Both the position numbers and the translations under genes were made by a program. The notes below the pieces were generated by a model, which saw nothing but the letters and a program-made list of their open reading frames with translations, was not told where the DNA came from and made no database searches. 64,000 bases of DNA from Microcaldota archaeon (GTDB taxonomy: Archaea > Micrarchaeota > Micrarchaeia > Anstonellales > Bilamarchaeaceae): positions 50,677 through 114,676 of the forward strand of contig JAGMCT010000013.1 of NCBI GenBank assembly GCA_023129075.1. The letters are read 5' to 3'. This document shows, piece by piece, positions 13,097 through 39,874 of this stretch; position 1 is the stretch's first letter, and each line of letters opens with the position of its first letter.

Positions 13097-13261
13097 AACA
13101 GAAGGTTCAAAGGTAGAAGTTCAAGGTATCTACGCAAGGAGTTTCCAGAGCTCCTAAAGATGCCTAAATTATGGACACGCTCATATTTCCTTTCAACTAC
13201 TGGAAATGTTTCATCTGCAACAATACGAAAATACATAGAAAGGCAATGGGATGAGATATGA
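13097..13261 (+). pseudogene. Degenerate IS200/IS605 TnpA (Y1 transposase), C-terminal remnant
   Basis: Frame downstream of an in-frame TGA (13094-13096) reads NRRFKGRSSRYLRKEFPELLKMPKLWTRSYFLSTTGNVSSATIRKYIERQWDEI*; typical TnpA C-terminus including the helix that carries the catalytic Tyr; its TGA overlaps the tnpB ATG (ATGA, 13258-13261). Confidence 0.85.
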
Positions 13262-37748: not shown

Positions 37749-38777
37749 TCAGCCAAGTTGCCCTAATGCAGCTTTGATATCCCTGGCACTACCTCTCCCT
37801 TCATTTAAGCACTTCAAAAGTTCTTCTTTGAAATTCTCTTTTTCCAATTCCTCAACATTATTACAGAATACTAGTCCACATAGCACCCTTGCATAATTAA
37901 CATCCGATTCTGGCAGTCTATTCTTTAGGTCGCAGAACAGTTGCACTGCCTCCTGGTTTTTTCCCAACTCTTTCAGGCAATAAGCGCGTATGCATTCAGC
38001 CAGATTTCCTATTTCATAAGGTTTCGGGACTTTAAGGAAATCATCAATTTTTGAAATCACTAAATCATATTTCTTTTGTTTTCTCAATGCTTCACAGGAA
38101 TTCAAAAACATGTTATTGTTCTTCTGGATATGGGGTGGGGCTTTCTCTATTAGAGAAATGATTTCCCCAAACATATCACGCCGGTAGTATGCGTCAATCA
38201 TGGAATTGCAGGTAACAACATTTGCTATGTTCTTTTGTACTACTTCATCAAAAATTTCCTTTGCATTTGTTACATCTCCTGCTTTTCCGTATGCATCAAT
38301 CATAGAATTATATGTATATTCATCTGCTATTCTTCTGCTTACTGCTTTGTCAAAGATTTCCTTTGCATTTGTTACGTCTCCTGCTTTTCCGTATGCATCA
38401 ATCATAGAATTATATGTATATTTATCTGTTATTCTCCTGCTTATTGCTTTGTCAAAGATTTCCCTTGCCTCTAACAATTTCCCTCTTATGCCCAATACTT
38501 TAATCAAAATATTCATAAAAAATACATCTGAAGGGTGGTCCAGTAAGGTCTCTTTCAAAAGTTTTTCTGCCTCCTGATATTTGTGTTTTATAATCAAAAT
38601 CTTAGCTCTTGCAGATATCTGTCTGGACTGCTCTGAAGTTTTTGGTCCTTTTCGGCTGAAGGCTTTGTTTTTTGGACTTCCATTGCTTCTATTAGCTAAT
38701 TTGTTTGGTTTATAAGGATATTTGTCCATTCTAATATTGTGGTAAATAAGTATTAAAAATGTTCCTATGGGATTCAT
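37749..38777 (-). CDS. PPR/TPR-like helical repeat protein
   Basis: Repeats YTYNSMIDAYGKAGDVTNAKEIFDKAVSRRIADE / YTYNSMIDAYGKAGDVTNAKEIFDEVVQKNIANV; 102-bp near-identical DNA repeat (offset 38281 to 38383). The initiator may be the internal MDKYPYKPNKLA. Confidence 0.8.
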   Translation of the reverse strand: MNPIGTFLILIYHNIRMDKYPYKPNKLANRSNGSPKNKAFSRKGPKTSEQSRQISARAKILIIKHKYQEAEKLLKETLLDHPSDVFFMNILIKVLGIRGKLLEAREIFDKAISRRITDKYTYNSMIDAYGKAGDVTNAKEIFDKAVSRRIADEYTYNSMIDAYGKAGDVTNAKEIFDEVVQKNIANVVTCNSMIDAYYRRDMFGEIISLIEKAPPHIQKNNNMFLNSCEALRKQKKYDLVISKIDDFLKVPKPYEIGNLAECIRAYCLKELGKNQEAVQLFCDLKNRLPESDVNYARVLCGLVFCNNVEELEKENFKEELLKCLNEGRGSARDIKAALGQLG

Positions 38778-38793: not shown

Positions 38794-39093
38794 TTCGTAG
38801 ATTATCCAAAGGATAAACCGACCGAGTGAGCAGTAAGAATACGCTGAGGGAGGGAACTTGGAAATCCGCAGGATTTCTGAGTGTTTTATCCGTAGGATAA
38901 ACCGACCGAGTAAGCAATAAGAATACGCTGAGGGAGGGACCTTGGAAATCCAATAGATTTCTGAGTGTTTTATCCATAGGATAAACCGACCGGGTGAACA
39001 GTAAGAATACGCTGAGGGAGGGAACTTGGAAATCCGCAGGATTTCTGAGTGTTTTATCCGTAGGATAAACCGACCGAGTAAGCAATAAGAATA
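38794..39093 (-). repeat. Tandem array of 84-bp units, each starting with a copy of the tRNA-Ser 3' end
   Basis: cgctgagggaggga at 38842, 38926, 39010 and then in the tRNA itself at 39094 (exact 84-bp spacing); each unit has two small hairpins (aaatcc-gca-ggattt; ttatcc-gta-ggataa). Confidence 0.93.
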
Positions 39094-39177
39094 CGCTGAG
39101 GGAGGGATTTGAACCCTCAAGTCCCGAAAGACACTGGATTAGCAGTCCAGCGCACTACCAGATTATGCGACCTCAGC
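39094..39177 (-). tRNA. tRNA-Ser (anticodon GCU)
   Basis: GCTGAGG...CTGGACTGCTAATCCAG...TGTCTTTCGGGACTT...GAGGGTTCAAATCCCTC CCTCAGC G: full acceptor stem, GCT anticodon, long variable arm, T-arm, discriminator G. Confidence 0.95.
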
Positions 39178-39343
39178 ATGAGGAGCTCTTATGCGACGAA
39201 TGCTGTGGGTATTTGCCAAAAGCAAATCTGACCTCAGCATGAGGAGCTCTTATGCAACGAATGCTGTGGGTTATCTCCAAAGGAGATTCCGACCTCAGCA
39301 TTTATGTTGAGGGTATTTGCCAAAGGCAAATCTGACCTCAGCA
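39178..39343 (-). repeat. Array of three modules that copy the tRNA-Ser 5' end, upstream of the tRNA
   Basis: gacctcagca at 39169 (tRNA), 39230, 39291 and 39334 (spacing 61, 61, 43); each followed on the minus strand by a small hairpin and a partially complementary CC(A/T)CA(A/G)CA. Confidence 0.92.
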
Positions 39344-39370
39344 CAATATACATCTTTTCCAAAGGAAAGA

Positions 39371-39379
39371 TATAAAAAA
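39371..39379 (-). promoter_or_regulatory. TATA-like element upstream of the tRNA-Ser module array
   Basis: Minus-strand TTTTTTATA ~28 nt upstream of the first tRNA-5'-like module (39343). Confidence 0.4.
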
Positions 39380-39382
39380 CAA

Positions 39383-39874
39383 TTATAAAGAAGAAACAAA
39401 TTTCATCATAACTACTCTGAGCCTTCCATCTATCTCTTCTGCTTCCATAATCTTATTTTCAAACAACTCCTTGACTGTCCGCTTGTCATCTTCAACAGCA
39501 CGCTTAAACCACTCTACTTCATGCGGAATATCCCCCTTAACATAATATGCAATTGCAAGAGTTAAATCATAAATTGCAAGCTCCTTTTTCTCTTTTATTC
39601 CCTCTCGTTTCTTCTTGAGATAGGAAATAGCGGAATCAGGTTTTCCAGAACCAATTAAAGAAAGGGCATAGAATAATCTCTCCCTTTGAAAAATTCTTGC
39701 TTTGGAGAAAAACTCTACTGCTTTTCCATAATCTTTTTTGAAAAAATAAAGAATTGCCTTGTAAGCTGTCATTCTTTTTGGGTCAACATTTCCTGTTGCA
39801 AGAGAAATTGCATTCTCCAGCTTCTCAGCAGAACCCTGCTTCACTGCATTATCACATTCCTGCTCAAAACCCAT
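39383..39874 (-). CDS. TPR-like hypothetical protein
   Basis: 163 aa; KAILYFFKKDYGKAVEFFSKARIFQRERLFYALSLIGSGKPDSAISYLKK helical-repeat pattern. Confidence 0.65.
   Translation of the reverse strand: MGFEQECDNAVKQGSAEKLENAISLATGNVDPKRMTAYKAILYFFKKDYGKAVEFFSKARIFQRERLFYALSLIGSGKPDSAISYLKKKREGIKEKKELAIYDLTLAIAYYVKGDIPHEVEWFKRAVEDDKRTVKELFENKIMEAEEIDGRLRVVMMKFVSSL

What the first reader, a model, noticed from the sequence alone, without database searches (positions are those of the whole stretch)
38794..39379. tRNA-Ser(GCU) gene flanked on both sides by tandem modules copying its own ends, each carrying hairpins with varying stems
Seen directly: downstream of the tRNA are 3.5 units of exactly 84 bp, each opening with the last 14 nt of the tRNA (TCCCTCCCTCAGCG on the minus strand). 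Upstream are three units (61, 61, 43 bp), each opening with the tRNA 5' end (TGCTGAGGTC). The units contain small hairpins built around CC-NNN-GG whose stems differ but keep pairing: ATTTGCC/GGCAAAT, ATCTCC/GGAGAT, TTTATCC/GGATAAA, AAATCC/GGATTT. Inference: this is either a family of small palindromic elements that repeatedly inserted at or duplicated the tRNA ends, or a structured precursor RNA with decoy processing sites. I know of no named system with this architecture.
Basis: partly seen in the sequence, partly recalled or inferred. Interest (0 to 1): 0.88.

Follow-up and report, generated by a model that had tools for sequence, protein, structure and literature searches.

The report
Hairpin elements rebuilding archaeal tRNA ends
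In a small, apparently DPANN-type archaeon, a tRNA gene is boxed in on both sides by small hairpin repeats that carry copies of its own ends; the same kind of hairpin repeat recurs at a third of the genome's tRNA genes, and in related genomes it sits inside proteins and inside tRNA genes, which points to a spreading, MITE-like element that re-creates tRNA ends where it lands.

Summary
It is not unique. Twelve of 36 tRNA genes in this genome carry such modules; exact end copies occur at 9 of 35 tRNAs versus 0.04 expected. Five-prime copies begin at nt 1 and 3-prime copies end at nt 73. Downstream modules contain a double hairpin (7-bp stem, N3 loop, linker TCTCTC, 7-bp stem) with compensatory stem changes. 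A covariance model built only from other genera finds this genome's modules at E=1.5e-12. In three relatives the same element occurs 20-36 times, away from recognisable tRNAs, often in frame inside proteins, with filled and empty sites. Their tRNA genes are interrupted in the D- and T-loops, at the same place (59/60) where five tRNAs here have their 3-prime copy start. In 6 of 6 cases the TATA-like box lies before the outermost 5-prime copy, not before the tRNA. Best reading: dispersed hairpin elements inserted into tRNA genes, surviving where an intact end was re-created, then amplified in tandem. The enzyme and copying step are unknown; a processing function is not excluded.

The parts
39094..39177 (-). 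tRNA-Ser(GCU) gene, mature nt 1 at 39177, nt 73 at 39094
   Evidence: ARAGORN and Rfam RF00005, 61.8 bits
39010..39093 (-). 3' module 1: spacer, hairpin A (39053-39069), linker, hairpin B (39029-39045), copy of last 14 nt of the tRNA (39010-39023)
   Evidence: matches model R1 at E=9.7e-18 and R2 (built without this genome) at 1.6e-6
38926..39009 (-). 3' module 2 (diverged in hairpin B), tRNA-end copy 38926-38939
38842..38925 (-). 3' module 3, hairpin A 38885-38901, hairpin B 38861-38877, tRNA-end copy 38842-38855
38802..38841 (-). truncated 3' module 4: spacer and hairpin A only (38802-38816), no tRNA copy
39178..39238 (-). 5' module nearest the tRNA: copy of tRNA nt 1-9 (39230-39238), hairpin (39211-39227), acceptor-like arm X', leader
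39239..39299 (-). 5' module 2: copy of nt 1-9 (39291-39299), hairpin ATCTCC/GGAGAT (39273-39287), X', leader
39300..39342 (-). 5' module 3 (outermost): copy of nt 1-9 (39334-39342), hairpin ATTTGCC/GGCAAAT (39315-39331), X'
39351..39370 (-). further hairpin (ATCTTTtCC-N3-GGAAAGAT, one bulge) upstream of the outermost copy
   Evidence: read from sequence; in the predicted fold
39368..39390 (-). TATA-like AT stretch at the usual distance (-48..-26) from the outermost 5' copy, not from the tRNA
   Evidence: promoter role inferred

Best explanation
The window shows one site of a dispersed family of very small hairpin elements that invaded tRNA genes of an apparently DPANN/woesearchaeal lineage. 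Shown: the double-hairpin element is multi-copy and shared between genera, varies by compensatory changes, has filled and empty sites in relatives' proteins, nests in other hairpins; relatives' tRNA genes are interrupted in the D- and T-loops by hairpin insertions. Shown: here the modules sit at tRNA ends, each with a copy of the tRNA end that stops exactly at the mature terminus. Inferred: elements went into the tRNA gene just behind the acceptor strand or D-arm (5' side) or at the T-loop (3' side); the insertions that persisted are those in which the severed end (nt 1 to 8-13, or nt 60 to 73) was duplicated so that a complete tRNA was re-created inside the old gene limits, leaving element plus old end as a flanking module. 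Inferred: arrays then grew by tandem duplication (84 bp, 61 bp) and further nested insertion. No mobilising enzyme is identified; end duplication may come from staggered-cut insertion or from template switching at hairpins.
For: 12 of 36 own tRNAs carry modules; exact copies at 9/35 vs 0.04 expected. Pattern search: the hairpin-B motif occurs in the genome only at tRNA flanks; of the model hits only two (C1:12011-12127, nested) have no tRNA nearby. Model R2, built from genera g2/g4 only, hits own modules at 1.5e-12 and finds 20, 36 and 30 copies in G001, G013, G003. Stem covariation: 8 of 14 pairs with changes on both sides, score 0.476 vs 0.181+/-0.032 shuffled, lost when slid by one column. 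Relatives: 32 of 50 inspected copies are open in frames of 150 aa or more, including deoxyhypusine synthase, a nitrilase, a type 2 IPP isomerase (my reading) and LysRS; LysRS gives reciprocal filled/empty sites with 2-4 nt duplications. Interrupted tRNAs in relatives with T-loop insertions at TTCAA^ATCCC, the point where five tRNAs here have their 3' copy start. TATA-like box before the outermost 5' copy in 6 of 6 cases (score 7-8) and never before the tRNA (5 = random). Modules also in G006, G013, G026, G031, G034, G036, G045, G063 and class-level G088, G096, always copying their own tRNA's end; absent at Ser tRNAs of other relatives.
Against: The 2-4 nt duplications at protein sites do not by themselves explain 8-25 nt tRNA-end copies, so a second step is assumed. 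Copies ending exactly at nt 1 or nt 73 are more precise than random staggered cuts predict. The hairpins that interrupt relatives' tRNAs are hairpin insertions in general; not each one was shown to match models R1/R2. X/X' arms of the 5' modules fit their own tRNA, which could mean function. No transposase was found: a Y1 remnant only, RTs in relatives are of other kinds. No population-level empty site at the same tRNA in the same species is available.
Confidence: 0.6

Rival explanations
1. Functional pre-tRNA leader/trailer: the modules are acceptor-stem minihelices in the transcript that act as decoys, chaperones or alternative ends during RNase P / tRNase Z processing, and selection keeps copies and stems matched.
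For: 5' modules pair X with X' in a tRNA-specific way (96 of 112 pairs vs 71.6 after permuting tRNAs, p=1e-4; X' windows chosen by hand); the promoter-like box lies upstream of them; copies within arrays are perfect while hairpin tips turn over; strong folding.
Against: Patchy presence among orthologous Ser tRNAs of related genomes; 24 of 36 own tRNAs manage without; 3' modules show no significant own-copy outer stem; the same double hairpin is spread in proteins elsewhere.
Confidence: 0.17
2. Purely mutational origin without a mobile element: replication slippage and template switching at hairpins duplicated tRNA ends, and quasi-palindrome correction keeps stems complementary.
For: Exact tandem units of 84 and 61 bp; hairpin tips of the three Leu-CAA modules differ completely while flanks are nearly identical; direct and inverted copies of the tRNA end side by side.
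Against: The same double-hairpin sequence family appears at unrelated sites and genera, including clean in-frame insertions with empty sites.
Confidence: 0.15
3. Remnants of integration of larger elements (integrase or casposon type) that use tRNA 3' ends as attachment sites.
For: 3' copies of 13-15 nt at several tRNAs resemble att repeats.
Against: Copies of 5' ends are as common; copy lengths vary from 7 to 25 nt; units hold no genes, only hairpins; element also in proteins.
Confidence: 0.04

Closest known systems
Rickettsia palindromic elements (RPE)
   Same: Small palindromic repeats inserted in frame inside unrelated protein genes; here seen in relatives G001, G003, G013.
   Different: Here about 45-60 nt in an archaeon, with two short hairpins; in the window genome confined to tRNA ends, with copies of the tRNA termini.
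Mitochondrial double-hairpin elements / repetitive hairpin-forming elements (Allomyces, sponges) and yeast GC clusters
   Same: Dispersed hairpins and double hairpins near tRNA and inside rRNA or protein genes (PMC2800124); stem variation and nesting recall the Allomyces elements (own knowledge).
   Different: Cellular archaeal genome; end copies of the neighbouring tRNA and a conserved linker TCTCTC; no sequence relation tested.
Prokaryotic MITEs and REP/RAYT elements
   Same: Short non-coding palindromic repeats, patchy between genomes (PMC10969869, PMC3733652).
   Different: No matching transposase; no Y1 transposase in two element-rich genomes; short or variable duplications.
[quoted passage not shown]
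   Same: Relatives' tRNA genes are interrupted in D- and T-loops, positions known for archaeal introns (PMC6379350).
   Different: In the window genome the tRNA is intact and the modules lie outside it; BHB structure at the relatives' junctions was not established.

Membership tests
Rickettsia palindromic elements | In-frame insertion inside protein-coding genes | tested here: met
   In relatives only: 32 of 50 copies lie in open frames of 150 aa or more; Pfam domains confirm real genes. Not seen in the window genome.
Rickettsia palindromic elements | Occurrence in Rickettsia, about 150 bp, own conserved peptide | tested here: not met
   Archaeal genomes, 45-60 nt; so it works like an RPE but is not filed as one.
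Mitochondrial double-hairpin elements | Two adjacent hairpins with varying, complementary stems, dispersed | tested here: met
Mitochondrial double-hairpin elements | Located in mitochondrial DNA / shared ancestry | tested here: not met
   Cellular archaeal genomes
MITE / REP-RAYT | Mobilised by a related transposase (Y1 type for REP) | tested here: not met
   No Y1_Tnp in G001 or G013, a 54-aa remnant in own genome, one in G003; other transposases not tested
MITE / REP-RAYT | Target-site duplication | tested here: inconclusive
   2-4 nt at two LysRS sites; 8 nt at IPP isomerase read by eye; 7-25 nt end copies at tRNAs
Archaeal BHB tRNA introns | Insertion within the tRNA at a BHB exon-intron junction | not tested
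   Insertions inside tRNAs seen in relatives; the window tRNA is uninterrupted; BHB not scored systematically
tRNA-targeted integrases / casposons | Element inserted at the tRNA 3' end with att-like repeat of fixed length and its own integrase | tested here: not met
   5' copies as common as 3' copies, copy length 7-25 nt, no genes in the units; integrase genes elsewhere not searched

The most novel reading that the evidence does not exclude
A lineage-wide system in which small hairpin elements invade tRNA genes at loops, and the host tolerates them either by re-creating the tRNA end outside the element (this genome) or by removing internal insertions from the transcript (relatives with few recognisable intact tRNAs), with the acceptor-mimicking modules serving tRNA processing.
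Probability: 0.2. Interest if true: 0.9.

Novelty: new variant of a known kind. Interest (0 to 1): 0.72.

Why it matters
tRNA genes are among the most constrained genes, yet here they are a main landing site of a tiny repeat, and the way out seems to be rebuilding a tRNA end. It gives a directly testable route for how tRNA genes become interrupted or regain integrity, an old question in archaeal tRNA evolution, and what looks like a case of RPE-like in-frame palindromes not described before in this archaeal group. It also warns that standard tRNA finders miss most tRNA genes in some related genomes.

Tried and rejected
Simple slippage of the 84-bp unit alone: rejected as the whole story because the module family is dispersed. 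tRNA-end copies as ordinary target-site duplications of the double hairpin: rejected as sufficient, since protein sites show 2-4 nt. RAYT/Y1 mobilisation: no consistent transposase. Reverse transcription by a resident RT: the RTs found in relatives look like a group II intron (on a contig that looks foreign) and, from the adjacent RT-16 RNA, a DGR-like RT; none in the own genome. A link with the adjacent PPR protein gene: the gene is nearly confined to this genome, while element-rich relatives lack it. An outer stem in all 3' modules: only 5 of 14, not significant. Modules as an Rfam family: no match in the window.

Full report
OBSERVATION. The window (G000:C5:50677-114676, a 0.99-Mb genome in 25 contigs) holds one tRNA gene, Ser-GCU, minus strand 39094-39177. 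Both flanks are modular exactly as described: 84-bp units downstream with the last 14 nt of the tRNA (38842, 38926, 39010), 61/61/43-bp units upstream with its first 9 nt (39230, 39291, 39334). The fourth downstream unit is cut inside its first hairpin. Eight of the 11 CC-N3/4-GG hairpins (stem >=6) in 64 kb lie here, and the sense strand folds with z = -4.9.

IT IS GENOME-WIDE AND TIED TO tRNA GENES. The hairpin-B motif CTCAGAAATCC-N3-GGATTTC, with up to 3 mismatches, occurs in the genome only next to tRNAs: Ser-GCU, Lys-UUU, Arg-UCU and, inverted, Gly-GCC. Reading the flanks of the tRNAs found with RF00005 gives 3' modules at Ser-GCU, Ser-UGA, Lys-UUU, Arg-UCU, Arg-UCG (2), Leu-CAG, Leu-UAG (2) and, as a T-arm copy, Thr-UGU; and 5' modules at Ser-GCU (3), Ser-UGA, Ser-CGA (degenerate copy), Leu-CAA (3), Leu-GAG and a Met-CAU tRNA: 12 of 36 tRNAs. 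Exact copies (9 nt 5', 10 nt 3') are found at 9 of 35 tRNAs, against 0.04 from shuffled flanks. 5' copies start at nt 1, 3' copies end at nt 73; the inner boundary varies (nt 8-13 here; nt 60 or 65).

ANATOMY. 3' module: spacer, hairpin A (7 bp), linker nCTCTCa, hairpin B (7 bp), CAAG, tRNA 3' end. 5' module: X (= tRNA nt 1-7 and a few more), hairpin, X' (complement of X), leader often like ATTCGTTGCACTCA, then the next X or the tRNA. X/X' pairing is specific to each tRNA: 96 of 112 pairs against 71.6 when X is permuted between tRNAs, p = 1e-4; X' windows were picked by hand. An outer stem for 3' modules is clear only in 5 of 14. In the three Leu-CAA modules the flanks are almost identical while the hairpin tips are ATCACC/GGTGAT, ATAACGC/GCGTTAT and ATCGCC/GGCGAT.

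A DISPERSED FAMILY IN RELATIVES. Model R1 from own modules hits 9 of 99 genomes (own included), best in genera g2 and g4 of the same family. Model R2, built from g2/g4 sequences only, hits own modules (C16 Leu-CAG 1.5e-12, C5 Arg-UCG 1.2e-11) and 20, 36 and 30 places in G001, G013 and G003. Its stems covary: 8 of 14 pairs changed on both sides, score 0.476 vs 0.181+/-0.032 in shuffles, none of 500 reaching it, and lost on sliding. None of the places inspected in G001, G013 and G003 is near a tRNA recognised by ARAGORN, with the caveat that most tRNAs there are not recognised and that one weak G003 hit lies just behind a tRNA found by the covariance model; 32 of 50 lie in open frames of 150 aa or more, a few directly before an ATG. 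The reading frames include deoxyhypusine synthase, nitrilase and class I LysRS by Pfam; IPP isomerase type 2 is my reading of a protein that matches FMN_dh. In LysRS, G003 has the element where G001 reads TKHD-VDSYEY and G001 has one where G003 reads NKIHW; the DNA gives 48- and 51-nt insertions with 2-4 nt duplications. Nested insertions into other hairpins occur.

tRNA GENES OF RELATIVES. RF00005 at E<=1e-3 finds only 4, 10, 5 and 6 tRNAs in G001, G003, G008 and G026, against 36 in the own genome and 22-42 in five class-level genomes. The reason is visible: D-loop insertions (L186, L197, L217, L219) and T-loop insertions at TTCAA^ATCCC or its equivalent (L190, L192, L215, L220, L221, L222, L230), up to about 205 nt. 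This T-loop point, 59/60, is where the 3' copies of five own tRNAs begin. End-copy modules also occur in G006, G013, G026, G031, G034, G036, G045 and G063, and in class-level G088 and G096 with 5' copies of 16 to 25 nt. They are absent at Ser tRNAs of G007, G011, G021, G024, G026, G027, G030, G033 and G035.

DIRECTION OF THE EVENT. In module-less own tRNAs a TATA-like motif lies about 36 nt before nt 1. For all six tRNAs with 5' modules the TATA-like stretch sits at that distance from the outermost copy (scores 7-8; module-less mean 6.8) and not from the tRNA (5 in each; random 5.3) (motif list chosen by me, three of the six individually significant at 0.008). So the outermost copy appears to mark the old gene start, and the modules lie inside the old gene limits. 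Hence the inference: insertion into the tRNA gene behind the 5' acceptor strand, or at the T-loop for 3' modules, plus re-creation of the missing end, then tandem growth.

ALTERNATIVES. A processing function is possible because the modules should be transcribed and mimic the acceptor stem, but the patchy distribution argues against need. Pure template switching explains duplication and stem correction but not dispersal into proteins. Integrase-type att remnants do not explain 5' copies. No enzyme was found: the Y1 transposase is a remnant here and absent from G001 and G013; reverse transcriptases in relatives look like a group II intron and a DGR-like RT, none in the own genome.

KNOWN SYSTEMS. 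[quoted passage not shown] The open-access library holds nothing on such repeats in Woesearchaeota. Lineage is inferred from archaeal gene content, tRNA introns and genome size; in a named collection the hairpin motif hit two Woesearchaeota contigs, a Flavobacteriaceae contig and a Verrucomicrobiales contig, so that is weak support only. Genomes are metagenome assemblies without names, which limits strain-level tests.

Noticed in passing
37749-38777 (-): Strong pentatricopeptide-repeat (PPR) protein (PF01535 101 bits, PF13041 82 bits) directly downstream of the array; PPR proteins are rare in archaea, and only 3 of 58 other relatives have even a weak hit.
   Followed up: partly
G001, G003, G008, G026 (loci L175-L199, L210-L231): tRNA genes heavily interrupted in D-loop and T-loop by hairpin insertions, so that standard models find only 4-10 tRNAs per genome.
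   Followed up: partly
L028, L031, L045 downstream of tRNAs; L022 (G021) upstream of Gly and Thr tRNAs: A second, G+C-rich tRNA-adjacent element, about GGGGGAGGGTCAGG-n3-ACCCTnAAACTGGGGAGGGGGTGTCCCCCTCCGCGG, seemingly shared between genera; no Rfam match.
   Followed up: no
window 13100-13246 (L110): 54-aa remnant of a Y1 (IS200/IS605 type) transposase.
   Followed up: no
own C1:12011-12127 (L102): Nested double-hairpin elements inserted in the G+C-rich element, one of the few sites without a tRNA.
   Followed up: partly
upstream of several tRNAs (own Met, Ser-UGA, Ser-CGA, Ser-GCU, Glu-CUC; G013, G036): Shared leader motif ATTCGTTGCACTCA directly before nt 1.
   Followed up: no
L267 (G003:C71): Reverse transcriptase split over two frames beside an RT-16 RNA (DGR-like).
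   Followed up: no
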